DNA of 64,000 bases from Streptomyces halstedii (GTDB lineage Bacteria; Actinomycetota; Actinomycetes; Streptomycetales; Streptomycetaceae). Where the stretch lies: NCBI GenBank assembly GCA_000720535.1, contig JOAZ01000004.1, forward strand, positions 62,001 to 126,000, written 5' to 3'. The notes beneath the pieces were generated by a model, which was given only the letters and a program-made list of their open reading frames with translations, did no database searches and was not told the origin of the DNA. The translations under genes and the position numbers were made by a program. This document shows positions 15,077 through 26,950 of the stretch, piece after piece. The number at the start of each line of letters is the position of its first letter. Position 1 is the first letter of the stretch.

Positions 15077-15481
15077 TCAGTCGGCGGTGTTGATCATCGA
15101 CGCGGCGGCGTACGTGAGGTAGTCCCACAGCTTCCGGTCGTGCTCGGGGGAGAGGTCCAGCTCGTCCAGCGCCACCCGCATGTGGCCGAGCCAGGCGTCG
15201 TGCGCCGCCCGGTCCACCCGGAACGGGACGTGCCGCATCCGCAGCCGGGGGTGGCCCCGGCGGTCGCTGTAGGTGCGCGGACCGCCCCAGTACTGCATCA
15301 GGAACAGGGCGAAGCGCTCCTCGGCCGGCCCCAGATCCTCTTCGGGGTACATCGGCCGCAGCAGCGGGTCGTCCGCCACACCCTGGTAGAAGCGGTGGAC
15401 CAGGCGCCGGAACGTCTCCTCGCCGCCGACCTGCTCGTAGAAGGTCTGCTCCTGAAGCGTGTCGCGCGGAATCTCTGTCAC
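15077..15481 (-). CDS. glbO: Group II truncated haemoglobin
   Basis: This is a 134-residue trHbO-type globin. Visible landmarks are TFYEQVGGEETFRRLVHRFY, with the B10 Tyr in RFYQGV, the short LRPMYP turn, and FLMQYWGGP with the conserved Trp at G8. The proximal-His region is GHPRLRMRHVPF. Group II globins bind oxygen and NO and may help respiration or NO detoxification. The GTG at 15481 is chosen because the family begins just upstream of the A helix. It follows the FHA gene by 77 bases on the same strand, with a 12-base palindrome between them, so it may have its own promoter. Confidence 0.9.
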   Translation of the reverse strand: MTEIPRDTLQEQTFYEQVGGEETFRRLVHRFYQGVADDPLLRPMYPEEDLGPAEERFALFLMQYWGGPRTYSDRRGHPRLRMRHVPFRVDRAAHDAWLGHMRVALDELDLSPEHDRKLWDYLTYAAASMINTAD

Positions 15482-15558: not shown

Positions 15559-16935
15559 TCAGTCGCGGCGGACCGTGATCGTCGTCCAGGCGCCGACGTG
15601 CACCTGGTCGCCGTCCTGGAGCGGGACGGGCACATAGGGCTGGATCGGGTCCTCGGCGCCGTTGAGCGTGGTGCCGTTGGTGGAGTTCTGGTCGACCACG
15701 GCCCAACTGCCGTCCGGCTGCCGCACCAGCACCGCGTGCTGGTGCGAGACGCCCGGGTCCTCCGGCGGCACGGCGAGATCGATGTCGGGCGACTCCCCGG
15801 TGCTCTGCCGGCGCCGGCCGACGGTGACCTGGTTGCCGGTCAGCGCGAGGCGCTGCTCGGGGGAGTACGCGGGCAGGTTGAGCCTGGTGGCCTCCGGGCC
15901 GCTGCGCTGCATCATCGCCAGGAAGTAGTCGCGGTCCGGGGCGACGACCGCCGTCCAGCTCGCCTCGTCCCGGTCCGGGCCCGGCCCGGCACCCTGCGGG
16001 CCCGTGGCCTGCTGGGCGGGACCCTGCGGATCCGGCCCCTGCTGACCGGGCACCGGGCTCTGACCGGGGAACTGGGGTGCCGGGGCGGCCGGAGACGACT
16101 GCGGGCCCTGCTGGAAGGCCTGCGGGGTCTGCTGCCGCGACGGCGGGGGCAGCATCCAGTCGTCGTCGCCGGAGCGCGGCGCCTGGGGCCGGGGCGGCGC
16201 GGACTGCTGCGCCGACTGCTGCTGGAACGACGGCGGGGGCGGCGGACCCTGGCGCTGCGGCTCGAACGGCGAGGGCGCACCGGGCGGCCCCTGCGCACCG
16301 GGCTGTCCGGGCTGTCCCTGCGGGCCGGAAGGCCCCGGCTGCCCCGCTTGTCCCGGCTGTCCCGGCCGGTTCTGCGGGTCGAACGGCGAGGGCCTGCCCT
16401 GGCCGTCGAAGGGCGACGGCGACTGCTGCTGGAAGGCGGGCGGGGGCGGCGGGCCCTGCCGGAAGGGATGCGGCGGCGGCGCGTCGCCCCGCTCCGGCGC
16501 CAGCGGCTCGGCGGGGCGGTTCACCTGCGAGGGCCGCGAGCTCTGGTACTCGAACGGGTCACGCTGCCGCTGTGACGACGGGCCCGTCTGCGCCGTGAAA
16601 CCGGGCGGCAGGCCGAGACCGGGCGCCGGGGAACCCGGGCCGGGCTGCGGCGCCAGCGGGGTGTACGAGGTGGCCGTGTTCGTGAGGTAGTTCCAGCGGC
16701 ACTCCTCGCAGAACGGCGCCATCGCCTCGCGCGGGGTGCGGCACTGCGGGCACAGCTCCGCCTGCGCGGTCGGCTCCCCGGGGCCGGACGGGCCCGGCGG
16801 CGGGTAGCCGTAACCGCGTGCGGGCGGCGGAGGGGGCACGGCGCCCGTGGGCGCACCCGCCCCGGCCATGCGGTGTCCGCAGACCTCGCACCAGTCCTCG
16901 GAACCCGACTGGTGTCCGTTCGGGCAGGTCGGCAT
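15559..16935 (-). CDS. Zinc-ribbon and FHA-domain protein of the PknG cluster
   Basis: This 458-residue protein begins with two Cys-pair ribbons: CPNGHQSGSEDWCEVCG at residues 4-20 and CPQCRTPREAMAPFCEEC near 62-79. A long Pro/Gln/Gly-rich disordered stretch follows, from about 90 to 330. A C-terminal FHA domain (about 375-458) has the expected VTVGRR, VSHQHA and NSTNGT phosphothreonine-binding signature. It should act as a reader of Thr phosphorylation. The ETTS phospho-switch of mycobacterial GarA is not visible, so it is not a simple GarA/OdhI orthologue. It follows the VWA gene by 80 bases in the kinase/phosphatase cluster and is a likely partner or substrate of that kinase; this is inference. 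Confidence 0.87.
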   Translation of the reverse strand: MPTCPNGHQSGSEDWCEVCGHRMAGAGAPTGAVPPPPPARGYGYPPPGPSGPGEPTAQAELCPQCRTPREAMAPFCEECRWNYLTNTATSYTPLAPQPGPGSPAPGLGLPPGFTAQTGPSSQRQRDPFEYQSSRPSQVNRPAEPLAPERGDAPPPHPFRQGPPPPPAFQQQSPSPFDGQGRPSPFDPQNRPGQPGQAGQPGPSGPQGQPGQPGAQGPPGAPSPFEPQRQGPPPPPSFQQQSAQQSAPPRPQAPRSGDDDWMLPPPSRQQTPQAFQQGPQSSPAAPAPQFPGQSPVPGQQGPDPQGPAQQATGPQGAGPGPDRDEASWTAVVAPDRDYFLAMMQRSGPEATRLNLPAYSPEQRLALTGNQVTVGRRRQSTGESPDIDLAVPPEDPGVSHQHAVLVRQPDGSWAVVDQNSTNGTTLNGAEDPIQPYVPVPLQDGDQVHVGAWTTITVRRD

Positions 16936-17015
16936 GTCGGCGCTTCCCCCTCTCCTGCTCCGGCCCGCAGGCCGTCATGCTCTGTCGACTGTGTCGTCCG
17001 TGGCGCTGTTCGTGG

Positions 17016-18374
17016 TCACTTCTTGACGCGAACAGTCTTGGTCGAGCGGGTTTCGAGCGTCATCTCGTCCGCTTCCGCCACTCTCGCTTTCAGTCGCACA
17101 GTACCGGTCGCCGCGTCGACGACGTCCACCACCTTGGCGAGCAGTTTCGCCGTATCCGCGTTTCCGGAGGCCGACGCGAGCTGCACCGCACGGCCCAGTT
17201 TGGCGGTCGCGCCGTCGACATCTCCCGATTTGCGTGCTTCCAGGCCTTGTTGGATGACCTGTGCCAGTTCGGCCTGCCCGGTGTAGTGCGCCACCTGCGG
17301 ATTGATCGAGGTGGACGCCACCATGTCGTCGGTCCAGACCGCGCGGACGAGCCCCTGCGAAAGCGTCCGCGGAGGCTCCCCGGCCGAGGCGGACGGCAGG
17401 ATCAGCGAGACGCGCGCCGCCAGCATCTCCTGGCCGATTCCGGCCTCGGGAACCCTGACGCAGATGTGGTAGTCGCGGGACTCGTCGCCCCAGGAGCCGG
17501 TCGGGTAGTCCCCCGCGCGGGGGCCCGCCTCGGTGCGGCGGCCGGTCAGGTCGGCGACGGTGGGAGCGACCTGCTTGACGAAGACGATCTCCACCCCGAC
17601 GGGGTTCCACAGCCGCAGAGCCACGTCCGCGACCTCCTTGCCCATCGCGTTCTCCATCATCCGCGTGAAGTCGTCGGCCAGGCCCGCCGGATCGGCGACG
17701 ATGTCGGCCGAGCCGAGCAGGGCGGACGCGATGGCTGTGACTTCTTTCACCTCCCAGTCCGTGCCGACACCCCGGGCGTCACAGGTGAACCGGCCCGCGC
17801 AGGCGTCCAGCGCGGCCCGCAGATCCTCCGGGGACTCGTGCTCGTTGCGGCCGTCGGTGAGGACGATGCCGTGCCGGATGTCCACGTCGACGGAACCGAG
17901 CAGCCGGTCGGCCAGCCGCAGCCAGGTGCCGATCGCCGTCCCGCCGCCCGCGGTCAGCCGGCGCAGGGCGTCCTTCGCCTGGGCCCTGGTCTGCGCGTCG
18001 GCGGTCGCCAGCCGTCCGTTGCCCGGATACACGTCCTTGGCGAGATGCGTCCCCGCCACCACGGCGAACCGGGTGCCGTCGCGCAGCGTGTCGAGGGCCG
18101 CGGCCGTGGCGTCCCGGGCGTTGCGCAGCTTCGTCGGCGGATAGTCCATCGACCCCGAGCAGTCGACCATGAGCACCACGGCGGCGTCCGGTCCCTGCCC
18201 GGAGCGCACCGGGCGCTGGCCCGCGTCGGCCGGCGTCACGCCCCCGGTGGTGCCGCCGCCCGTCGAGGTGACGGTGATGATCGCGTTGACCTCGCGCCCG
18301 CCCTCGGGCAGACAGGCGTTCTGGTACACCTCGACGGAGAACTGCGGCACGTGCGACTTGGAGAAGTTGGCCAT
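17016..18374 (-). CDS. VWA-domain protein (TerY-like) of the PknG cluster
   Basis: This 452-residue cytoplasmic protein has a von Willebrand A domain from about residue 60. The metal-binding DCSGSM near residue 70 is followed by later Thr and Asp sites (GGGTAIG; IVLTDGRNE). The N-terminal 50 residues carry a Thr/Gly-rich linker, and the C-terminal part is beta-rich, then helical (VAHYTGQAELAQVIQQGLEA). VWA proteins paired with a PP2C phosphatase and a Ser/Thr kinase are known as TerY-P triads. The ATG at 18374 has AGGAGC upstream; an earlier ATG at 18410 is possible. The leader repeats CAAGGAGC twice, offering two ribosome sites. Confidence 0.85.
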   Translation of the reverse strand: MANFSKSHVPQFSVEVYQNACLPEGGREVNAIITVTSTGGGTTGGVTPADAGQRPVRSGQGPDAAVVLMVDCSGSMDYPPTKLRNARDATAAALDTLRDGTRFAVVAGTHLAKDVYPGNGRLATADAQTRAQAKDALRRLTAGGGTAIGTWLRLADRLLGSVDVDIRHGIVLTDGRNEHESPEDLRAALDACAGRFTCDARGVGTDWEVKEVTAIASALLGSADIVADPAGLADDFTRMMENAMGKEVADVALRLWNPVGVEIVFVKQVAPTVADLTGRRTEAGPRAGDYPTGSWGDESRDYHICVRVPEAGIGQEMLAARVSLILPSASAGEPPRTLSQGLVRAVWTDDMVASTSINPQVAHYTGQAELAQVIQQGLEARKSGDVDGATAKLGRAVQLASASGNADTAKLLAKVVDVVDAATGTVRLKARVAEADEMTLETRSTKTVRVKK

Positions 18375-18490
18375 CTGAACGGCTCCTTGATGCTCCTTGT
18401 TGCTCCACATGGGTCAGGTGAAGACAGCGGTACGTGCGGGTCCGGGCAGCGGAGGGACGCGGGGCGCGCGCGGAGGGCGGCGGGCGCGGC

Positions 18491-19972
18491 TCAGCCGGCC
18501 GGGCAGGCCGATCCTGCCCCGTGCGACGGCACGGCGAACGGCAGCAGCGCCACCGTTACGTTGTCGTGGCCCCCGCCGTCCAGCGCGTGACCGACCAGCA
18601 CCTGGGCCCCGTGCAGGGGCCGTTCGTACGCGTCGTGCGGCACGGCGGCCGCCATCTCGGCCGCCGCCTCCGCGTAGTTCCACAGTCCGTCGGTGCACAC
18701 CACCACCAGGCCCGGCCGGTCCGGTTTGAAGGACGCGGTGTGCGGCTCCAGTTCGTAGGCGTCGGCGCCGAGCCACCCCGTGATGGCGTGGGCGCGCTCG
18801 TCCGCGTACGCCTCCGCCTCGCTCATCAGGCCGGTGGCGACCATCTGCGCGGCCCAGGAGTCGTCCTCCGTGAGCCGGGCGGGCGGGTGGGCGCGGTCCT
18901 GGGGCACCCAGTAGACGCGGCTGTCGCCGACCCAGCCGACGACCAGCAGGTCGCCGGCCACGACCGCGCCGACCAGGGTGCAGGCCGGGGCGTTCTGGTG
19001 GCGGTGCTGATCGTGTTCCGTCGCCCGGCCGGGGCCCTGGGCCAGCGCGTTGACCGCCTCGGACGCGGCCAGGATCGCCTCGTGCATCGCCTGCTGCGGA
19101 TGCGTTCCGCGCGGCAGCGACTCCAGCAGCGACGCGTCGGCGGCGGCCGCCGCGGCGGCGGACGCCTCGTCCGGGCGGCTCGCGGAGGAGACGCCGTCGC
19201 AGACGATCGCGACGACGGCGGGGGAGCCGTCCGGCAGGGCGGTGCCGGAGACCGCGAACGCGTCCTCGTTGCGGTGGTGGCGCAGCCCCCGGTCGCTGAC
19301 CGCCGCCACCGTGCCCAACTCCCGCTCCATGTGGTCGCGTTCACGGGGCTGGGCGTGGCCGCAGTTCTCGCAGTAGCCGTCGGTGTCCACGCGCCCGGAG
19401 CGGCAGGCGACACAGACCGTGCCGCCGGCCGGGACGGCCGCCGCCGCGTGCTCCGCCTGGCGCGGGTCCGGTGCCGCCAGCTCGAAGTCACCGCCGCCGC
19501 CGAGGCGTTCGGCGTCCGGGCCGTCCACCCGGACCGCCGACGAGACCGGTGCGGGCGCCGCCGAGGGGGCCTTGGAAGAAGCCGGCGCGGGCGTCGTCGC
19601 GGGCAGGGGGCGGCCGCCCGAGTCGGTCCCCGGGAGGTCGCTCGGGCGGTGCGTGGGCGCGGGCAGGTCGGAGCTGTCCACCTCGGACGCGGCCGGCCAC
19701 TGGACGGCCCCGGCTTCGGACGGGCCGCCGAGGGGCGTGGCCGTACCCGGCGTGGGCGTTCCCGAACCCGGCGTGGCGGTACCGGTGTCCGGCGTGGCCG
19801 GGTGCCGCGCGGGCGGCGTGATCGCGACCGTCGGGCGGTCGGCGGGAGGCGCGGGGACGGCCGAGAGGTCGTACCCGCACGCCCCGCAGAACCGGTCGCC
19901 CGACTCCAGCGGTTCCTCGCAGCTGGGGCATCCCGGCAAGGAGGCCCGCTGGTGGCTCTGTGACATCTTCAC
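18491..19972 (-). CDS. PP2C-type protein phosphatase with N-terminal zinc ribbons
   Basis: This 493-residue protein starts with a ribbon CPSCEEPLESGDRFCGAC (residues 15-32). A Pro/Thr-rich linker and a second ribbon CVACRSGRVDTDGYCENC (about 195-212) follow. The C-terminal half is a PP2C domain with RHHRNEDAF, IVCDGVSSA, GDSRVYW, CTDGLWNY and GGHDNVTV, so the Asp residues for the two-metal centre are all present. It should remove phosphate from Ser/Thr. The GTG at 19972 overlaps the kinase stop (GTGA), which implies balanced synthesis with the kinase. A start two codons later (ATG 19966) is also possible. Confidence 0.9.
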   Translation of the reverse strand: MKMSQSHQRASLPGCPSCEEPLESGDRFCGACGYDLSAVPAPPADRPTVAITPPARHPATPDTGTATPGSGTPTPGTATPLGGPSEAGAVQWPAASEVDSSDLPAPTHRPSDLPGTDSGGRPLPATTPAPASSKAPSAAPAPVSSAVRVDGPDAERLGGGGDFELAAPDPRQAEHAAAAVPAGGTVCVACRSGRVDTDGYCENCGHAQPRERDHMERELGTVAAVSDRGLRHHRNEDAFAVSGTALPDGSPAVVAIVCDGVSSASRPDEASAAAAAAADASLLESLPRGTHPQQAMHEAILAASEAVNALAQGPGRATEHDQHRHQNAPACTLVGAVVAGDLLVVGWVGDSRVYWVPQDRAHPPARLTEDDSWAAQMVATGLMSEAEAYADERAHAITGWLGADAYELEPHTASFKPDRPGLVVVCTDGLWNYAEAAAEMAAAVPHDAYERPLHGAQVLVGHALDGGGHDNVTVALLPFAVPSHGAGSACPAG

Positions 19973-22698
19973 ACCCAGGTCCGTGGGCGGAGGCGGTTGG
20001 CCCGCTCCACCAGTTCGATCCGCTCGTCGCCCCGCTGCGCGAGCCGGGCGAGCATCCGGTACGAGCGTTCGAGACCGAATCGGAGACCCCGCTCGTCCAG
20101 CTCGCTGCCCAGCAGCTTCCCCGGGGCCGAGGCCGCCGGGTCCGCCGTCCGAGGCGCGGGACCACCGGAGAGTACCCAGTCCAGCGCCGTACCCAGCACC
20201 TCGGTCGACAACCGCTCACGGCGCACCGCGTCCAGGCCGTACCCCCGCAACGCCGTCACCTGGGCGGCGGCGGCCGACAGGTCGTCGAGCAGCGGCTCCT
20301 GGGGTGACCGCCCGCGCAGCCGGGCCCGCACCGACGCGACCCGCGCCGCCGTGTAGTGGATCGACGCCTCCGGGACCGACTCCAGCGCCCGGACCGCACC
20401 GGCCCGGTCGCCCACCGCGATCCGCACCCGCGCCAGCCCGAACGCCGCGCTCACGAAGCTCGGATCGGTCGTCCACACCAGGTGGTAGTACTCGGCGGCG
20501 TTGTCCAGCTGGCCCAGCACCTCCGCGCAGATGCCGAGCGCCACCTTCGGCGCGGGCTCACCGGGGAACGCGTCGTACACCGCGTCGAAGGCGAGCGCCG
20601 CGTGCTCGTTCTCCCCGGTCACCAGGGAGGCCAGGCCCCGGTACCACACCACCCGCCAGTCGTCGGGATGCCGCTCCTCCACGGCGGCCAGCGCCCGGAC
20701 CGCGGAGTCGAGTTCGCCCATCTCCAGCCGGGCCCGCAGCTCACGCAGCCGGGTCTCCAGCGACGGCGCGGGCACGGAGTGCAGCGCGGAGATCAGCTCG
20801 GCCGGCGCCGAGGCCATCACACCGGCGAGGAAACCGGCGTTGGGGTCGTTCGCGTCGACCCGGGGGACCGGCAGGGCGAGCGAGGTGGCCCGCGCGTCGA
20901 ACGCCGCGAGCCGCGGGCGTCCGCCGGACACCATGACGGCCGGAGCGGGACCGGGGGCCGCGCGCGGGGCCGGCACCGCCGTCCGCGCCGGGGCGTACGC
21001 GGGCGCGCCGCCCGGCCCGCCCGCGCTGCCGCCCCGGACATGGGTGTCGGGGGCGTGGACCGGCCCGGCACCCGGCGCGGGGAGCGCCGGGGCCGGTACG
21101 ACCGGGGGCGGGGCGGCGGCGACGGGGCCCGGCGGCACGCCCGCGGGCCCCCCGGCGGGCACCGTCCGGCCCCGGCGCCGCACCCGGCCCGCCGGAGCGG
21201 CCCGGACACCGAGCCGCGAGACCTCCTCGGTCAGCTCCGCGAACAACTCCGTGTCGGTGACGCGGACTTCCGTCCCGAAGAGCGTCGAGAGCGCCGGGCG
21301 CGGGCGGCCCGTCTGGAGGGCCACCACCTCACGCAGTACCCCGGTCAGCTGCTCCGCCATCTCGGCCGCCGAGGCGAACCGCCGTGCCGGATCGGGGTCG
21401 GTGGCCCGGACCAGCAGCCGGTAGAAGGACTCGTACCGCCGGAACACCTCGATGTTGTCCGGGTCGGGCAGCGAGTCCACGAAGATGTTCGTGTACCCCT
21501 GGAAGTCGAAGGTGAGCACCGCGAGCGTCCGCGCGACCGTGTACAGGTCCGAGGCGACGGACGGGCCGACCTCGGCCACCTCCGGCGCCTGGTAGCCGAC
21601 GGTGCCGTAGATCGCCGACTCGTCGTCGTCCATCCGCCGCACCGCACCCATGTCGATGAGCTTGAGCTGGTCCTCGGTCTGGATCGCGTTGTCCACCTTG
21701 AAGTCGCAGTAGAGCAGATTGCGGCTGTGCAGATGGCCGAGCGCCTCCAGCGCCTCGATGCCGTACGCGCAGGCCTGCTCGACCGGCAGCGGGTCCCGCT
21801 TCCCGTCCGGGGCGCGGCGGCCGTTGGCGATCTCCTTGAGCGCCTTGCCGCCGACGTACTCCATCACTATGTAGCCGTCCAGCGACCCGGTCCGCTGGTC
21901 CAGGTGCTCCACGAAGTTGTAGATGCGGACGATGTTGGAGTGCTCGATCTCCGCCAGGAAGCGCCGCTCGGAGATGGCCGCCGCCATGGCGTCCTGGTCG
22001 CCCGTGTCCAGCAGGCCCTTCAGGACCACCCAGCGGTCCGACACCGCGCGGTCCACCGCGAGATACACCCAGCCCAGCCCGCCGTGCGCCAGGCAGCCCG
22101 CCACCTCGTACTGCCCGTGCACGACGTCACCGCCGCGCAGCTTGGGCACGAAGGAGTACGGGTGGCCGCACTTGGTGCAGAAGCCCTCCGTACGGCCCGC
22201 CCGCTCGCCGCGCGCCCGGCCCACCGGGGCGCCGCAGTCGGAGCGGGAGCAGAACCGCTTCCGCTCGGGGACCTCCGGGTTCTCCATCACCGCCGTGCGC
22301 GGGTCCGGGCGCGGCACGTCCGGGACGAGCACCAGACCCGCGCCCAGCCGGTTGCGCCCGGACGCCGTACCCGTCGTACTGCCCGACGAACGCACCGACA
22401 CCGGGCGGGAGGTGGACGCGCCCGACAGCCCGCGCGAGAGCCGGCCGGAGACCGACCGCCGTGACGTGGACGAGCGCGAGGAGGACCGCGCGGACGCGCC
22501 TGAGGCCGAGCGCTGCGAGCCGCTGTCACCGCCCCGGGTGCCCGCCCCGCCGCCCCCGGCGACGCCCGTGGGCGGCGAACTCACCATCCCCGTCGGCGAC
22601 ACGACCGGCGCAAGCCCGCACGTGTCGCAGTACAGCTCACCGCCGCCCATGTCCTCGTAGGCGCCCTCGCACGCGGGACGCTGGCACTGCGTACTCAT
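19969..22698 (-). CDS. pknG: PknG-like Ser/Thr protein kinase with rubredoxin-type and TPR domains
   Basis: This is a 909-residue protein. An N-terminal ribbon (CQRPACEG...YCDTCG) is followed by a Ser-rich region. A rubredoxin-like metal site follows at about 146-180 (CSRSDCG and FCTKCGHPYSF). The kinase domain has the Gly loop AHGGLGWVY near 200, catalytic LLYCDFKVDN near 331, DMG in place of DFG, and GTVGYQAPE. After a Pro-rich linker come TPR-like helices (about 636-800) containing PAPKVALGICAE and AAFGLARVR, which closely resemble the PknG TPR part. PknG controls glutamate metabolism by phosphorylating an FHA protein. The ATG at 22698 overlaps the upstream stop (ATGA). The Pro-to-Val change in the catalytic loop and the DMG are mild departures. 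Confidence 0.88.
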   Translation of the reverse strand: MSTQCQRPACEGAYEDMGGGELYCDTCGLAPVVSPTGMVSSPPTGVAGGGGAGTRGGDSGSQRSASGASARSSSRSSTSRRSVSGRLSRGLSGASTSRPVSVRSSGSTTGTASGRNRLGAGLVLVPDVPRPDPRTAVMENPEVPERKRFCSRSDCGAPVGRARGERAGRTEGFCTKCGHPYSFVPKLRGGDVVHGQYEVAGCLAHGGLGWVYLAVDRAVSDRWVVLKGLLDTGDQDAMAAAISERRFLAEIEHSNIVRIYNFVEHLDQRTGSLDGYIVMEYVGGKALKEIANGRRAPDGKRDPLPVEQACAYGIEALEALGHLHSRNLLYCDFKVDNAIQTEDQLKLIDMGAVRRMDDDESAIYGTVGYQAPEVAEVGPSVASDLYTVARTLAVLTFDFQGYTNIFVDSLPDPDNIEVFRRYESFYRLLVRATDPDPARRFASAAEMAEQLTGVLREVVALQTGRPRPALSTLFGTEVRVTDTELFAELTEEVSRLGVRAAPAGRVRRRGRTVPAGGPAGVPPGPVAAAPPPVVPAPALPAPGAGPVHAPDTHVRGGSAGGPGGAPAYAPARTAVPAPRAAPGPAPAVMVSGGRPRLAAFDARATSLALPVPRVDANDPNAGFLAGVMASAPAELISALHSVPAPSLETRLRELRARLEMGELDSAVRALAAVEERHPDDWRVVWYRGLASLVTGENEHAALAFDAVYDAFPGEPAPKVALGICAEVLGQLDNAAEYYHLVWTTDPSFVSAAFGLARVRIAVGDRAGAVRALESVPEASIHYTAARVASVRARLRGRSPQEPLLDDLSAAAAQVTALRGYGLDAVRRERLSTEVLGTALDWVLSGGPAPRTADPAASAPGKLLGSELDERGLRFGLERSYRMLARLAQRGDERIELVERANRLRPRTWV

Positions 22699-24038
22699 GA
22701 TGTCTCCCCGTCCCCGTAGCCGCCCCGGCCGCCCGCGCGGCGCGGTGCCGGCAGATCCGCGGCGGCCCGCTGGTAGCGCAGCACCGCCTGCTCGGCGACG
22801 CGCAGATCGCACGGAGCGCTCCACAGCATCCGGCGGGCCGTGTCGTACCGCTCGGTCAGCAGCGGGTCCTCCGCCATTCCGTGCCGGGCCACCTTGGCCC
22901 TGTACGCGTCGAGCCGGCCGCGCAGCTCCGCGCGGACCGCGAGCGGCGCCGTGACCGAGGTCAGCGACTCCCGGGCCCGCATCAGCTCGTCCTCGGCCTC
23001 CCGCTCCAGCGAGTCCAGCAGCGGCGAGAGCCGGCTCCACTGGGCGTGCCTGCGGTACGCCGCCGCCGTCGCGAGCCGCTCCTGCAACGCGGTCGGGGGC
23101 CCGCTGACCGCGGGCACCTCGCAGGCGGCGATCTTCGCCAGCACCTCGCCGCGCGCCAACCGGGCCTCGGCGAGCGTACGGGTCGTGCGCGACAGCAGGT
23201 CACGCAGCTGGAGCAGGCGCCGCTCGGAGTCCTGCCGGACCGCGAGCACCGCTTCGATCTCGCGGCGCACGTCCTCCAGGGCGAGGGCCGCCCGGTCGTA
23301 GCGCGTGGTGTCGGGCCGCCCCCCGCCGGGCGCGGCACTGCGGGGGCCCGGCACCCAGAACGCCAGGGGATCGGAGACCACCCGCGCCCGCAACGCGGTC
23401 AGCTCCTCGGTGATCGACTCCAGGTCGTCACCGGCCGGATGCTCCCCGGGCCGCACCCCGACGGAGTGCGCCAGCGAGCGGGTGCGGCGCAGCTCGGCCG
23501 TGAGCAGGTCGATCCGGGCGGGCAGCGCCGACCACACGGCGTCCGACGAGAGGACCATGTCCAGCGCGTGGGCGTACAGGTCGTTCATCCGGGCGACCAG
23601 GTCCTCCAGCGTGAACCGCTCGGAGAGCCGGGCCGGGCCGGTGAGCGAGGCGCCCGGACCCGCCGTCGCCCGGTTCGCCACGGTCACACCGTCGCCGCGC
23701 AGCAGCTCGGTCAGGGCCAGCAGGTCGCTCCTGCCCGGGTAGCGGCGCCTGGCCCGGATCTCACGGGCCGAGGCCAGCGCCCCGGCGTAGGCCTCGAAGT
23801 ACCTCCAGAGCAGCGTGATCGACCGCGTGGCCGAGGCCCAGCGCTCCTTGGTGACGCCGGTCAGCTCTGCGCCCTCCAGGAGACGGCGGCCGGCGTGTTC
23901 CTCCAGGGCGAGGAGCGAGGTCTCGATGGCCTCGTGCTCCGCGGCGAGCCGGGCCAGCGTACGGTCCGCCTCGTCCCGGCCCATCACCCGGCCGGGGGGC
24001 CCGCCCGCGTAGCCGGGGAAGGATCCCGCCACGCCCAT
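22695..24038 (-). CDS. Helical cytoplasmic protein between glnH and pknG, function unknown
   Basis: This 447-residue protein is not recognised. It has no signal peptide or membrane segment and is almost wholly alpha-helical, with heptad-like stretches such as RTLARLAAEHEAIETSLLA and ALEDVRREIEAVLAVRQ, so coiled coils are likely. Its stop overlaps the pknG start (ATGA), and its own ATG has a good GAGAGGTGAACG leader. The mycobacterial glnX-glnH-pknG operon, as I recall it, lacks this gene. By position it may be an adaptor that passes the GlnX signal to the kinase; this is inference only. Confidence 0.75.
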   Translation of the reverse strand: MGVAGSFPGYAGGPPGRVMGRDEADRTLARLAAEHEAIETSLLALEEHAGRRLLEGAELTGVTKERWASATRSITLLWRYFEAYAGALASAREIRARRRYPGRSDLLALTELLRGDGVTVANRATAGPGASLTGPARLSERFTLEDLVARMNDLYAHALDMVLSSDAVWSALPARIDLLTAELRRTRSLAHSVGVRPGEHPAGDDLESITEELTALRARVVSDPLAFWVPGPRSAAPGGGRPDTTRYDRAALALEDVRREIEAVLAVRQDSERRLLQLRDLLSRTTRTLAEARLARGEVLAKIAACEVPAVSGPPTALQERLATAAAYRRHAQWSRLSPLLDSLEREAEDELMRARESLTSVTAPLAVRAELRGRLDAYRAKVARHGMAEDPLLTERYDTARRMLWSAPCDLRVAEQAVLRYQRAAADLPAPRRAGGRGGYGDGETS

Positions 24039-24060
24039 CGTTCACCTCTCCGTTCTCTCG

Positions 24061-24117
24061 TCCCGGCCGGGGACCCGGCGGGTTCAGCTTCCCGGCCGGG
24101 GCCCGGCGGGGTTCAGT
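24061..24117 (-). repeat. Two-copy 29-bp tandem repeat in the glnH downstream gap
   Basis: A unit starting TCCCGGCCGGGG and ending GGTTCAG occurs at 24061-24089 and again at 24090-24117 with a one-base length difference. Together with the neighbouring array it fills the gap between the glnH stop and the next gene. Confidence 0.7.
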
Positions 24118-24200
24118 CGCTCCGGTACACGGCCGCCGGTTCAGTCGCTCCGGTACGTGGCCGCCGGGGTTCAGTCGCTCCGGTACGTGGCCGCCGGGGG
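24113..24200 (-). repeat. Tandem duplication of the glnH 3' terminus
   Basis: Three copies of a 28-30 base unit lie at 24113-24140, 24141-24170 and 24171-24200. The copy at 24171-24200 encodes the true end of glnH (PPAATYRSD and stop). The other two follow the stop and each would encode the same last residues and stop, with two base changes in the most distal copy. This looks like slipped replication of the gene end. Confidence 0.85.
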
Positions 24201-25205
24201 CCCGGTGACGCCGGGCAGCCCCTCCTCCAGCCACTCCTGGTACGACCGCATCCAGGGACTGCTCGCGCCGCCCCGCCGGTACTCCTCCAGCACGTGATTG
24301 ACCCGGGCCACCAGGTCGTCCGCGCCGAGCTTCGCCGCGACGCCGTAGTACTCGGTGGTGAACGGCTTGTCGCCCTTCAGCTCCACCGCGGGATCCTGGG
24401 CGGCCTGCCCCGCCGCCAGCGCGTTGTCGGTGACCACCGCGTCCACCTTGCCGAGCTGGAGCCGCACCAGGCAGTCCAGCTGGTTGGGGACGGTCAGCAG
24501 GTCCGGGTCGTCCGCCGTGCCCTCGTGCTCGTCCTTGAACACCGCGCCGTACGACTCCTTCTCCAGCGCCTCGTACGCCGTGGAGCCCTCGGCGGTGCAC
24601 ACCCGCTTGCCGGCCAGCGAACGGTCGTACCCGGTGATGTCCGACCCCTTCGAGGCCAGGACCTGCTGCCCGGCCTGGAAGTAGGCGGTGGAGAACGACA
24701 CCTGCTTCAGCCGGTCGCAGTTGATGGTCATGGTCCGGACGACGATGTCCACCCGGTCGTGCTCCAGCGCGGTGATGCGCTGGTTGGTGGGGATCGCCCG
24801 GAAGATCACCGCGTCGGGGTCACCGAGGATGTCCTTGGCGACCGCCCGCACCAGGTCGATGTCGAAGCCCTCCAGCGTGCCGCTCTCCGGATCGCGGTAG
24901 CCCCACCGGAAGCTGTTCTGGTCGACACCGGCGATCAGCTTCCCGCGCGCGCGGATCTTGTCGATGTTCGGCCCGCCCCCACCGGACGGCGGCAGGCTCG
25001 CCTCCGGGTCCACGCACGACTCGGCCGTGGTCCGCACCGCCGACGTCACCCCCCGGCCGGTGTCCCGCACGCCGTGGGAACCGTCCCCGTGCGCCAGCGG
25101 AAGCAGGGTGACCGCCGCCGTGACCGCGCAGGCCACCGCCATGCCCGTCACTCCGCCCCAGCCGCGCATCCGCACACGCGCCGACCGGTGGCCCGTCCCT
25201 CTCAT
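24171..25205 (-). CDS. glnH: GlnH-like periplasmic glutamate/aspartate-type binding protein
   Basis: This 344-residue exported solute-binding protein is of the SBP_bac_3 family. A basic N-terminus and a hydrophobic stretch (GMAVACAVTAAVTLLPLA) are followed by the mature fold beginning NIDKIRARGKLIAGVDQN. It contains the polar amino-acid pattern GTLEGFDIDLVRAVAKDI, then RTMTINCDR and DAVVTDNALAA. No convincing lipobox is present, so it may be anchored by its N-terminal helix. In mycobacteria GlnH senses aspartate/glutamate and signals through GlnX to PknG; no transporter genes accompany it here, which favours a sensor role. The ATG at 25205 has AGGGGGAG upstream. A GTG at 25220, overlapping the glnX stop, is an equally possible start. 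Confidence 0.85.
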   Translation of the reverse strand: MRGTGHRSARVRMRGWGGVTGMAVACAVTAAVTLLPLAHGDGSHGVRDTGRGVTSAVRTTAESCVDPEASLPPSGGGGPNIDKIRARGKLIAGVDQNSFRWGYRDPESGTLEGFDIDLVRAVAKDILGDPDAVIFRAIPTNQRITALEHDRVDIVVRTMTINCDRLKQVSFSTAYFQAGQQVLASKGSDITGYDRSLAGKRVCTAEGSTAYEALEKESYGAVFKDEHEGTADDPDLLTVPNQLDCLVRLQLGKVDAVVTDNALAAGQAAQDPAVELKGDKPFTTEYYGVAAKLGADDLVARVNHVLEEYRRGGASSPWMRSYQEWLEEGLPGVTGPPAATYRSD

Positions 25206-25216
25206 CGCTCCCCCTT

Positions 25217-26602
25217 TCACCGGTACTCCGAGAGCCTGCGGTTGATCCCGGCGATCGCGGCGACCGCGCCCAGCACGGCGAGGACACCGGCCCCCACCGG
25301 CAGTCCGCCCAGCGCCCCGCGTCCGTTCCTCGCCGCGCCGGTGAACTCGCTCTGCTCCTGGCCGAGCGCCTCCTCCAACGCCGTGTCCACCTGGGCGAAG
25401 GACTCACCCGTGGAGTCCTTCGCACCGATGATCTGCTTCAGCGCGCCGTCGTAGTCGCCCTGGTCGTCGGTGGTCCGCGCCCTGCGGTGGCGCTCCTGCC
25501 ACTCGGACACGGCGTCGGCCGCCCGCGCCACCGGCGCCCTGCCCCGGGCGTCGTCGGCGAGCCTCTCGGCGGTCGTCAGCTGCTCGCCGAGGGCCTTCAT
25601 ACCCGCGCCGTAGTCCGTCTCGTACTTGTCCTGGGTGCCGTCGGCCGTCAGGACCGCGCCGCGGGCCACCAGCGTGAGGTTCTCGTTGGCGCGTGCCTTC
25701 AGCGAGTTGATCCGGGCCTTGTTGAGGACGTCGAGCGACTCCTGACCGTGCGTCATCGCGGCGCGCAGCTCCGCGCGGGCGACCGTGTGGCCCACGGCCA
25801 GCCACAGCAGCACCACCGAGGCCGCCGCGGTCGCCGCGAGCAGCCCCCGGTTGAAGACCCGGTTGGTACGGCGGTAGGCGCGGCGCTGCGTCCACACCAG
25901 CGCGGCCAGCGCCACGACGCCCGCGCCGAGCGCGAGGAGGGGCCAACGCCGGGCGTCGGCCGTGTCGGTGGAGAGCCGGCCGGTCTCCGCCGCGTACAAC
26001 CGCTCGGCGGCCGGGAGGAGGTCGTTGGTCATCCGCTGGTTGGCGTACCGCAGGTAGGCGCCGCCCAGCGGCAGCCCCTGGCGGTTGTTGGCGCGGGCCC
26101 GCTCGACCAAGCCGGTGTATTCGGGGAGCAGTTCGTTGAGGGTCCTGATCTCCCCGGCGGACGAGGACGAGGCGTCGGTGCCGGCTGCGGCCTTCACCAG
26201 CAGCCGGGACGCCTCCTTGATGTCCTTCTCGTACTGGGCGTGGACGTCCTCGGGCTCCTCGGCGCCGGCCAGGAAGCCGCTCGCCGCCATCGTGTCCGCG
26301 TCGGCCAGGGAACGGTAGATGTCCGCCGCGTCCGCGCTCAGCGGCTGACTGCGCGTCACCACGTCGTCGGCGGCCGAGGCCCGCCCGGACACCTCCAGGG
26401 CGGTCACCGCCCCGAACGCCACGACCAGCAGGGCCAGTACGGCACCGATGACCTGGAGCCGGCCCGGCTCCGTCGTCGCCACGGCCCGCAGCCGCTCGGC
26501 GGCCACCGACCGGACACCGCGCTGCGCGGGTACGGCCGGGGACGCGTCCGGCCGGTCGGGCGCAGGCTCCCGCCGCGGGTCCGCGTTCGGCGGATATGTC
26601 AC
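25217..26602 (-). CDS. glnX: GlnX-like four-helix membrane sensor
   Basis: This 461-residue protein has four predicted membrane helices, at about 49-70, 220-238, 255-276 and 428-450. Two helical extracytoplasmic domains lie between helices 1-2 and 3-4, with little cytoplasmic mass. It has no enzyme domain. This topology matches GlnX, the membrane partner of GlnH and PknG in actinobacteria, which relays amino-acid availability across the membrane. The GTG at 26602 has GGGGGAGGTCAA just upstream. It is the first gene of the signalling cluster, so the main promoter should lie in 26603-26898. The assignment rests on topology and gene order, not sequence identity. Confidence 0.75.
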   Translation of the reverse strand: MTYPPNADPRREPAPDRPDASPAVPAQRGVRSVAAERLRAVATTEPGRLQVIGAVLALLVVAFGAVTALEVSGRASAADDVVTRSQPLSADAADIYRSLADADTMAASGFLAGAEEPEDVHAQYEKDIKEASRLLVKAAAGTDASSSSAGEIRTLNELLPEYTGLVERARANNRQGLPLGGAYLRYANQRMTNDLLPAAERLYAAETGRLSTDTADARRWPLLALGAGVVALAALVWTQRRAYRRTNRVFNRGLLAATAAASVVLLWLAVGHTVARAELRAAMTHGQESLDVLNKARINSLKARANENLTLVARGAVLTADGTQDKYETDYGAGMKALGEQLTTAERLADDARGRAPVARAADAVSEWQERHRRARTTDDQGDYDGALKQIIGAKDSTGESFAQVDTALEEALGQEQSEFTGAARNGRGALGGLPVGAGVLAVLGAVAAIAGINRRLSEYR

Positions 26603-26950
26603 TTGACCTCCCCCTCGGTCACTGGCGGCTGCCCGGTCCTCCGGCCGGTCGGAGGAAAGGTCCCTGGCCAGAAGTATGGCCGCAGGAACCGTCATTCACC
26701 AGGAACGCCCGGATCCTCACCCCGGTCCCCGTATTCGATCAGGACGAGCACAGCCGATCAAGGCGCGTCGCCGGACGGGCCCCGCGGGCCCCGGAACGCG
26801 CCGATCCCCCACCATGAACACGTTCGGGACATCTGATCGGTTCCCGTACGGATGAGGCGATTCGCGCGGCCGGTGCCGCCGGGGCACCGCACGACGACGG
26901 GGGCACCGGGGCGACACGCGCCGCCGGTGCCCCCGGTGCCTTTCGGTGCG
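26603..26950. other. Intergenic region: glnX promoter side and nagK-side terminator
   Basis: These 348 bases separate two minus-strand operons. The right part holds the hairpin that closes the sugar operon (26899-26934). The rest should contain the promoter of the glnX-glnH-pknG cluster. I see no clear -35/-10 pair, no conserved ORF and no RNA gene in it. Confidence 0.5.
26899..26934 (-). terminator. Terminator hairpin downstream of the sugar operon
   Basis: An 11-bp perfect stem (GGGGGCACCGG with its complement) encloses a 14-base loop, 16 bases after the stop of the kinase gene. Confidence 0.6.

What the first reader, a model, noticed from the sequence alone, without database searches (positions are those of the whole stretch)
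15559..26602. GlnX-GlnH-PknG amino-acid sensing module fused to a VWA-PP2C-FHA set
The minus strand carries, in order, a four-helix membrane sensor, a glutamate-type binding protein without transporter genes, a helical unknown, a PknG-like kinase with rubredoxin and TPR parts, a PP2C phosphatase, a VWA protein and an FHA protein. The first and kinase parts match the glnX-glnH-pknG module of mycobacteria and corynebacteria. VWA plus PP2C plus kinase is the composition of TerY-P triads. The two have been described separately; having both with an FHA reader in one cluster would make a complete sense-write-erase-read circuit for extracellular amino acids.
Basis: partly seen in the sequence, partly recalled or inferred. 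Interest (0 to 1): 0.8.

Follow-up and report, generated by a model that had tools for sequence, protein, structure and literature searches.

The report
PknG amino-acid sensing operon, extended form
A soil bacterium carries, in one conserved row of seven genes, a known nutrient-sensing kinase pathway together with a phosphatase and a pair of proteins that resemble a starvation switch known from archaea; the short version studied in tuberculosis bacteria may be what is left after losing them.

Summary
On the minus strand (15559-26695) lie GlnX, a GlnH-type binding protein, a helical unknown (Hel), PknG, a PP2C phosphatase, a VWA protein and a zinc-ribbon FHA protein. The set is collinear in all 63 fetched loci of 22 kb or more (62 titled Streptomyces). 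VWA_3_C (PF18571), the domain ending this VWA, is in 66 of 98 sampled genomes with PknG and 2 of 198 without; 57 of 82 copies lie within 10 kb of PknG, always downstream on the same strand. The halves stay together where the order differs (family f84 and Nonomuraea). Family f3 (probably Mycobacteriaceae) mostly has GlnX-GlnH-PknG alone. The TerY-P label is not supported. The VWA belongs to the family of 4FX5, solved but of unknown function; its nearest other fold is archaeal ArnB, whose zinc-finger/FHA partner ArnA also matches the cluster FHA protein over both parts. Two Ser/Thr in the VWA's last nine residues are kept in 26 of 26 chosen rows. Best reading: GlnH-GlnX-controlled PknG phosphorylates the VWA tail, the FHA protein reads it, PP2C resets it. 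The interactions are inferred, not shown. A GarA-like protein, the known kind of PknG target, lies elsewhere in this genome. New variant of a known kind.

The parts
25217..26695 (-). GlnX-family membrane sensor, 492 aa from ATG 26695 (GTG at 26602 also possible), four hydrophobic segments
   Evidence: NCBIfam NF058618 E 3.1e-145, over its cut-off; four hydrophobic segments; the Streptomyces profile matches GlnX in nine f3 loci at 5e-58 to 9e-81
24171..25220 (-). GlnH-type solute-binding protein, 349 aa, no transporter genes in the cluster
   Evidence: SBP_bac_3 1.9e-22; best solved relative 6H1U GlnH 6e-48; pocket residues R148, T163, T165, R170, D265 kept, Q247 in place of Trp (mapped by hand; column counts)
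22695..24038 (-). Hel: helical protein of unknown family, 447 aa
   Evidence: no Pfam, NCBIfam or PADLOC family of weight; model all-helical apart from short strands, mean pLDDT 89.7; no fold match; recurs in Streptomyces, f84, f85 and L212
19969..22698 (-). PknG: N-terminal zinc-ribbon-like Cys motif, rubredoxin, Hanks kinase, TPR domain, 909 aa
   Evidence: its ATG overlaps the stop codon of Hel
18491..19972 (-). PP2C Ser/Thr phosphatase with N-terminal zinc ribbons, 493 aa
   Evidence: PP2C_2 2.6e-14; Stp1 model 1.7e-28, under its cut-off; motifs NED, DG, TDG and DN kept in 112 or 113 of 116 rows, most others gaps
17016..18410 (-). VWA protein (VWA inside a beta-sandwich, helical C-terminal part VWA_3_C, Ser/Thr tail), 464 aa or 452 from an internal ATG
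17019..17045 (-). last nine residues of the VWA protein (S456 to K464), which hold S456 and T459
   Evidence: S or T in 26 of 26 chosen rows at both places, while most neighbours vary
15559..16935 (-). FHA protein: two N-terminal zinc ribbons, Pro/Gln-rich linker, conserved W..V..D..Y segment, C-terminal FHA domain, 458 aa
   Evidence: FHA 1.7e-15; in 16 rows C4, C16, C19, C62, C76, C79 and FHA residues R374, S397, H400, N420 are invariant, C65 nearly; FHA motif pattern in 99 of 107 rows

Best explanation
It is the long form of the actinobacterial GlnX-GlnH-PknG nutrient pathway. Steps taken from the known system: GlnH binds a polar amino acid outside the cell and GlnX passes this through the membrane to the TPR domain of PknG, which becomes active (itself a published model). 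Inferred here: PknG phosphorylates the Ser/Thr tail of its VWA partner; the zinc-ribbon/FHA protein, perhaps already loosely bound through its zinc ribbons, docks on the phosphorylated tail and the pair switches from a loose to a tight complex, as ArnA-ArnB does in Sulfolobus; the PP2C enzyme encoded next to PknG removes the phosphates. Hel is proposed as a cytoplasmic adaptor between sensor and kinase. What the VWA-FHA pair then acts on is unknown. PknG probably still controls a GarA-like protein encoded elsewhere. The three-gene form in family f3 (probably Mycobacteriaceae) is best read as having lost the PP2C, VWA and FHA arm.
For: Linkage: VWA_3_C in 66 of 98 sampled genomes with PknG and 2 of 198 without (Fisher p 1e-38, not corrected for kinship); 57 of 82 VWA_3_C copies within 10 kb of PknG, 57 of 57 downstream on the same strand. 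The link survives a change of order: in f84, GlnX-GlnH follow PknG in 16 of 18 loci, 8 of them holding all seven genes, likewise in Nonomuraea. Coupled genes: 4-bp overlaps; PknG-PP2C spacing within 20 bp in 77 of 78 loci of the Streptomyces set. Competent parts: phosphatase motifs; FHA pattern in 99 of 107, kinase patterns in 118 of 138, MIDAS patterns in 109 of 112 rows. Switch model: VWA fold nearest to 4FX5 (5e-63), then ArnB in the ArnA-ArnB structure 8S05 (8.8e-21, TM 0.62) and vWA2 5A8J; the FHA-protein profile matches ArnA (5A8I 3.5e-8, 8S05 4.5e-8) across zinc ribbon and FHA, while the GarA and OdhI entries among the 42 matches cover the FHA part only; published behaviour of ArnA-ArnB (PMC6509490, PMC12852372 passages); S456 and T459 S/T in 26 of 26 rows. 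Direction: L212, with all seven genes, branches first within f3. GarA-like protein elsewhere: L232.
Against: No interaction, phosphorylation or expression was tested. FHA and VWA are not strictly tied: three f84 loci (L171, L174, L175) keep FHA without a proper VWA, L176 keeps FHA with a degenerate VWA lacking the tail, and VWA occurs without FHA found nearby in L181, L190, L208 and L225-L227; of these L181 and L208 do not match the tail pattern (though S/T remain at the aligned places), L190 and L225-L227 keep S-T-x-[TS]. In one search GarA entries score as high as ArnA on the FHA domain, the plain search with the FHA domain alone did not list ArnA but did list GarA, and zinc ribbons are common, so kinship of the FHA half is suggestive only. 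ArnB's phosphosites lie in its helical bundle, not in a matching tail. The GlnH specificity residue differs. 25 of 82 VWA_3_C copies are not near PknG, 23 of them in f85. Gain or loss rests on an unrooted quick tree.
Confidence: 0.52

Rival explanations
1. The FHA protein is a second PknG substrate or adaptor of GarA type. It docks on the autophosphorylated N-terminus of PknG, not on the VWA, and PP2C resets PknG and GarA; the VWA has another task, such as metal-dependent scaffolding.
For: PknG recruits GarA/OdhI through its phosphorylated N-terminus (PMC8546545, PMC6069109 passages). The Streptomyces PknG N-terminus is rich in Ser/Thr. Three f84 loci keep FHA after losing a proper VWA. GarA is among the solved relatives of the FHA domain.
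Against: The cluster FHA protein scores 20.6 bits with the OdhI model against 188.6 for the protein at L232. No strictly kept Thr motif was seen by eye in the PknG N-termini printed; many rows did not match the anchor used.
Confidence: 0.25
2. PP2C, VWA and FHA form a TerY-P-like stress or conflict module that became attached to PknG by chance or by sharing a promoter, without a common task.
For: Kinase-PP2C-VWA neighbours are described for actinobacterial conflict systems (PMC7159879 passage). PP2C-VWA-FHA occurs without PknG nearby at L210, and a trypsin-like gene stands beside PknG-VWA at L226 and L190.
Against: The association persists through a change of order and in several families. No PADLOC model of weight for VWA, FHA or PP2C. 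No TerY model among the matches.
Confidence: 0.15
3. The Streptomyces GlnH senses something other than aspartate or glutamate, and the cluster is a general envelope or nitrogen sensor whose output is not central metabolism. This does not exclude the switch part of the best explanation.
For: The residue matching Trp232 is Gln in 80 of 80 Streptomyces rows, Tyr in 16 of 16 f84 rows and varied in f85 and f7. Related PknG-VWA loci pair with sugar-type binding proteins.
Against: The residues matching Arg147, Thr162, Ser164, Arg169 and Asp250 are kept or conservatively changed in the window protein.
Confidence: 0.3

Closest known systems
GlnX-GlnH-PknG operon (Mycobacterium, Corynebacterium)
   Same: Same three proteins, same order in Streptomyces; known to control GarA/OdhI phosphorylation in response to Asp/Glu; conservation of sensor, signalling and effector proteins in Streptomyces already stated (PMC6069109 abstract and passages)
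   Different: Here PP2C, VWA, FHA and usually Hel are part of the same gene row; the passages read do not mention them
ArnA-ArnB switch of Sulfolobus with kinase ArnC and phosphatase PP2A
   Same: Tripartite VWA/beta-sandwich/helical protein and a zinc-finger plus FHA partner, Hanks kinase, phosphatase, nutrient control (PMC6509490, PMC12852372, PMC7472852 passages); profile and fold matches to both halves
   Different: Archaeal, controls motility; phosphosites in the helical bundle; phosphatase is PP2A; no GlnX-GlnH sensor is mentioned in the passages read; match of the FHA half is weak
4FX5, von Willebrand factor type A protein of Catenulispora acidiphila
   Same: Same protein family over nearly full length (profile E 1.5e-173; Foldseek 5e-63)
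   Different: Likened to ArnB's paralog in PMC6509490, but no function and no link to PknG in the passages read
TerY-P triads
   Same: VWA, PP2C and Hanks kinase side by side
   Different: Kinase of PknG type with TPR and rubredoxin; no TerY model among the matches; definition of TerY-P recalled, not read
GarA/OdhI
   Same: FHA protein in the PknG pathway
   Different: The GarA-like protein of this genome is at another locus (L232); the cluster FHA protein is longer and shows no ETTS stretch (that ETTS is the PknG site is recalled)

Membership tests
GlnX-GlnH-PknG pathway | GlnX-family membrane protein | tested here: met
   NF058618 484 bits, cut-off 250; the stricter equivalog NF041460 is matched but under its cut-off, 188 of 780
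GlnX-GlnH-PknG pathway | Asp/Glu-type binding protein of GlnH kind | tested here: inconclusive
   best solved relative is GlnH, five of six named ligand contacts kept or conservatively changed, Trp replaced by Gln
GlnX-GlnH-PknG pathway | GlnH is a lipoprotein | tested here: inconclusive
   a loose lipobox pattern is in 42 of 79 Streptomyces rows; the window protein has AVAC, which fits it, but the hydrophobic stretch runs on after the Cys
GlnX-GlnH-PknG pathway | PknG with rubredoxin, kinase and TPR | tested here: met
   PF16919, PF00069, PF16918 all over cut-off
GlnX-GlnH-PknG pathway | GarA/OdhI target in the genome | tested here: inconclusive
   L232: OdhI model 3.6e-56, 188.6 bits, just under the cut-off of 200; next model 63.6; holds an ETTS stretch
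ArnA-ArnB-like switch | VWA split into a beta-sandwich with C-terminal helical part | tested here: met
   model pLDDT 90.1 and Foldseek ranks 1-4
ArnA-ArnB-like switch | partner with zinc finger and FHA domain encoded nearby | tested here: met
ArnA-ArnB-like switch | homology of the FHA half to ArnA beyond the FHA domain | tested here: inconclusive
   profile of 16 rows: ArnA at 3.5e-8 and 4.5e-8, spanning zinc ribbon and FHA; FHA domain alone: ArnA not among 7 matches at E up to 0.001
ArnA-ArnB-like switch | VWA C-terminus phosphorylated and bound by the FHA domain | not testable with these tools
   only conservation of S456 and T459 was seen
TerY-P triad | kinase of TerY-P type (zinc ribbon, no TPR/rubredoxin) | tested here: not met
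   kinase is PknG type; definition partly recalled, partly from a passage of PMC7159879
TerY-P triad | TerY-type VWA | tested here: inconclusive
   no TerY model among NCBIfam matches; whether the library holds one was not checked
TerY-P triad | linked tellurite-resistance (ter) genes | not tested
   no search for ter families was made

The most novel reading that the evidence does not exclude
The old form of the PknG pathway is a complete nutrient circuit: sensor, kinase, phosphatase and a two-protein phospho-switch that is the bacterial counterpart of archaeal ArnA-ArnB. The pathway known from mycobacteria and corynebacteria is a reduced remnant with GarA as its known output, so Streptomyces and many other actinobacteria would have a second, unstudied output of amino-acid sensing.
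Probability: 0.41. Interest if true: 0.85.

Novelty: new variant of a known kind. Interest (0 to 1): 0.66.

Why it matters
PknG is one of the bacterial Ser/Thr kinases with a known stimulus. In C. glutamicum the phosphatase Ppp acts on its target OdhI (PMC9769921 passage), but outputs beyond GarA/OdhI in other actinobacteria are little known. A conserved PP2C, VWA and FHA set beside PknG gives named candidates for a local phosphatase and a second output. It also gives a setting to a solved protein (4FX5) and links two nutrient-signalling fields, bacterial PknG and archaeal ArnA-ArnB, that the papers read treat apart. In Streptomyces, amino-acid signalling may bear on development and antibiotic production (general knowledge).

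Tried and rejected
TerY-P membership: dropped because the kinase is of PknG type and no TerY model was among the matches. Anti-phage defence: PADLOC gave generic kinase models for PknG and one weak PP2C match. Hel: sequence and fold searches gave only coiled-coil or chance-level matches, best Foldseek E 0.27. The cluster FHA protein as GarA itself: rejected. A sigma-70 promoter and terminator scan found none of either, not informative in such G+C-rich DNA. A repeat of about 30 bp at the end of GlnH and behind it was not found at the same place in L011, so it is not taken as a feature of the system.

Errors of mine, mended: a PP2C pattern was written wrongly (R..NED) and replaced by column counts. 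The tail columns are biased because rows were chosen by the motif; one search is used instead. Its 26 rows are the window and 25 of the 112 VWA rows found, chosen by hand; the truncated or degenerate L176, L199 and L230 were not among them. One search used a wrong frame and is void; one search replaces it. The globin query was in a wrong frame; one search repeats it in the right one.

Rows dropped before counts: hits under 40 bits; L230 (no row was under the length limit); nine f3 loci left out of the print. Of the 80 loci of the Streptomyces set, 6 plus the window went into the tree. Gene content beyond the Streptomyces set was read in 60 fetched loci, a part of the 131 PknG and 82 VWA_3_C places; for f3 in 10 of 28 PknG places, for f85 in 10 of 39 plus one VWA_3_C place. 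Some 'absent' states are contig ends (L173, L200, L229), so its 11 changes are too many.
Full report
What is there. The window belongs to a 7.74 Mb genome (G000) whose nearest relatives found are Streptomyces. On the minus strand, in transcription order: GlnX 26695-25217, GlnH 25220-24171, Hel 24038-22695, PknG 22698-19969, PP2C 19972-18491, VWA 18410-17016 and FHA 16935-15559. Pfam confirms kinase, rubredoxin and TPR of PknG, PP2C, VWA with its C-terminal domain VWA_3_C, FHA and a family 3 binding protein. GlnX has no Pfam family of weight, but NCBIfam names it GlnX family well over the cut-off. Three joints overlap by 4 bp, including PknG/PP2C, which couples the known and the new half.

Conservation in Streptomyces. 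In all 80 the genes that are present stand on one strand in the same order; 72 of 80 hold all seven and the other 8 are short stretches that end inside the set. Of 63 loci of at least 22 kb, 63 hold all seven.

Conservation beyond. In 296 genomes drawn from the class, PknG_TPR (E up to 1e-15) was found in 98 and VWA_3_C (E up to 1e-4) in 68. From the two lists, 66 of the 68 VWA_3_C genomes have PknG; the exceptions are G423, whose PknG lies in pieces (L230), and G310. Fisher's test gives 1e-38, without correction for kinship. At the level of places, 57 of 82 VWA_3_C copies are within 10 kb of a PknG_TPR place, 57 of 57 downstream on the same strand, at 1.1-4.2 kb; of the other 25, 23 are in family f85 and 2 in Streptomyces. 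One of these two, G555, is a contig break: the halves sit at contig ends (L228, L229). Seen from PknG, 56 of 98 genomes have VWA_3_C beside a PknG: f1 25 of 26, f84 10 of 17, f85 11 of 21, f7 6 of 6, f3 1 of 24, f78, f104 and f108 1 of 1 each, f93 0 of 1. None of the 14 control genomes has VWA_3_C, C. glutamicum included, which has PknG_TPR.

Gene content of 60 further loci. f84 (18 loci): GlnX and GlnH stand downstream of PknG in 16, as Hel-PknG-PP2C-VWA-FHA-GlnX-GlnH with all seven in 8. Nonomuraea gerenzanensis, a named member of Streptosporangiaceae, has this same order. f7 (6 of 6), f78 and f104 (1 of 1 each): GlnX-GlnH-PknG-PP2C-VWA-FHA without a Hel match. f85 (11 loci): all seven in 7, one of them with only a faint Hel. 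f3 (10 loci): GlnX-GlnH-PknG in 8, PknG alone in 1, and all seven in 1, L212, a further copy in genome G552. f108: one GlnX-GlnH-PknG locus and one PknG-VWA locus. f93: PknG, PP2C, FHA and a weak VWA, contig cut. Ten further Streptomyces loci hold four lone PknG-like kinases, three PknG-VWA pairs, the two halves of G555 and the broken set of G423. Family codes carry no names; that f3 is Mycobacteriaceae is an inference. Because the two halves stay neighbours although their order differs between families, a shared task is more likely than chance adjacency.

Direction of change. In a tree of 64 PknG rows, f84, f3, f85 and f7 each form one side of a well supported branch, and L212 is the first branch within f3. 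The simplest reading is that the long form is old and that most f3 members lost PP2C, VWA, FHA and Hel. VWA presence needs 11 changes on this tree as coded, some of them contig ends; the root is only a midpoint, and transfer of L212 from elsewhere is not excluded.

The VWA protein. A profile of 26 rows matches 4FX5, a protein of Catenulispora acidiphila, at 1.5e-173. The predicted model (pLDDT 90.1) matches 4FX5 at 5e-63; the next matches are ArnB in the ArnA-ArnB crystal structure 8S05 (8.8e-21, TM 0.62) and its paralog vWA2 5A8J (5.1e-18), ahead of inter-alpha-inhibitor and Sec24. Authors of the Arn papers already noted the likeness of vWA2 and 4FX5 (PMC6509490 and PMC12852372, passages), and the later paper says that such proteins are mostly not involved in multi-phosphorylation processes like ArnAB; the passages read do not mention the operon context. 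[quoted passage not shown] quickly phosphorylated T353 lies in a SIETT motif (PMC12852372, abstract, passages and section 2.2).

The FHA protein. It has two zinc ribbons followed by an FHA domain; the ribbon cysteines and the FHA residues R374, S397, H400 and N420 are invariant or nearly so in 16 rows. A profile of these rows matches 42 solved sequences at E up to 0.01: 1UHT, listed as 'expressed protein', first (9.7e-12), then GarA (1.1e-8), and ArnA at 3.5e-8 (5A8I) and 4.5e-8 (8S05). The two ArnA entries are the only ones of the 42 whose best stretch spans zinc ribbon and FHA together (profile 86-281); one other (9SFA) covers only the ribbon part and the rest the FHA part. A search with the single FHA domain listed 7 matches, GarA but not ArnA. 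'Works like ArnA-ArnB' is claimed; 'is an ortholog' is not.

The tail. In the 26-row alignment only 12 of 61 Ser/Thr positions of the window protein remain Ser/Thr in 85% of rows or more. Seven do so in all rows: T46, four residues (S85, S87, T158, T185) in the DxSxS, GGT and TDG motifs that I read as the MIDAS metal site, and S456 and T459 in the last nine residues, most of whose neighbours vary. The wider motif [LI][ED]-[TAVS]-x-S-[TVS]-x-T is found in 101 of 112 rows; the 11 without it include truncated and degenerate ones. Nonomuraea has ELDAGSERT. In Streptomyces it mostly reads LETRSTKT. The GarA-like protein of this genome has SETTSTIS. OdhI is phosphorylated by PknG at Thr14 (PMC9769921 passage); that this Thr lies in an ETTS motif is recalled. 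The likeness is suggestive only. Against a strict bond of tail and reader: PknG-VWA loci without FHA found nearby fail the pattern in L181 and L208 but keep S-T-x-[TS] in L190 and L225-L227; three f84 loci keep FHA without a proper VWA.

Enzymes and sensor. The phosphatase motifs are kept in 112 or 113 of 116 rows. In GlnH, residues matching Arg147, Thr162, Ser164, Arg169 and Asp250 of the M. tuberculosis protein are R148, T163, T165, R170 and D265 (mapped by hand); the residue matching Trp232, which contacts the ligand side chain (PMC6069109 passage), is Q247, and Gln in 80 of 80 Streptomyces rows, Tyr in 16 of 16 f84 rows and Trp in 8 of 9 f3 rows. The ligand in Streptomyces is therefore open. 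Whether GlnH is a lipoprotein here is unclear. GlnX shows four hydrophobic segments in the window and in 85 of 121 rows, three in 34 and two in 2. Hel is helical with no known relative.

What was known. The three-gene operon, its function and its wide occurrence in Actinobacteria are in print (PMC6069109, PMC8546545, PMC9769921; passages). In the main text of the first two, 'phosphatase' and 'von Willebrand' do not occur. A held-library search for PknG with von Willebrand, FHA and phosphatase gave one paper, a 2005 domain survey that does not describe this set in the passages seen. Of 98 papers and 27, 20 each were listed; none of these listings describes the set in title or abstract start. 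Of 14 papers holding PknG, GlnX and GlnH, 13 were listed and three read in passages. Subscription papers are mostly not held, and a published STRING view (Fig. 2B of PMC6069109, legend only seen) may show some neighbours, so priority is not claimed with certainty.

Verdict. The mechanism beyond GlnH-GlnX-PknG is inferred.

Noticed in passing
L226:6282-13795, L190:5959-13577, L208:7754-14156: A second kind of locus pairs a PknG-like kinase and a VWA protein with a sugar-type binding protein (SBP_bac_1), and in L226 and L190 with a trypsin-like protein; the sensor part of PknG-VWA systems seems exchangeable.
   Followed up: partly
L210:6884-11082: PP2C, VWA and FHA together without PknG nearby in an f85 genome (G327) that has PknG elsewhere.
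   Followed up: no
15077-15481: A bacterial-like globin gene (Bac_globin 1.2e-35) follows the FHA gene; a match is in 66 of 80 loci of the Streptomyces set, within 1.5 kb behind FHA in 61, and of the 60 further loci only in L228 and L230, both Streptomyces.
   Followed up: partly
24103-24199: A repeat of about 30 bp, three copies, from the end of GlnH into the gap before Hel; not found at the same place in L011.
   Followed up: partly
L232: GarA-like protein of this genome carries an N-terminal zinc ribbon and an ETTS stretch.
   Followed up: partly
L211, L212, L213: One f3 genome (G552) holds three PknG copies, two short-form and one full seven-gene copy.
   Followed up: partly
L230:8130-15408: In G423 the whole set is present in order but GlnX, GlnH, PknG and VWA lie in pieces, by decay or poor assembly.
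   Followed up: no
L239: A Nonomuraea record of 11.85 Mb is filed as a plasmid but has chromosome size.
   Followed up: no
15562-22698: Zinc-ribbon-like Cys motifs occur in PknG, PP2C and FHA proteins of the cluster, and at the end of the VWA proteins L225-L227; a shared assembly role is possible.
   Followed up: no
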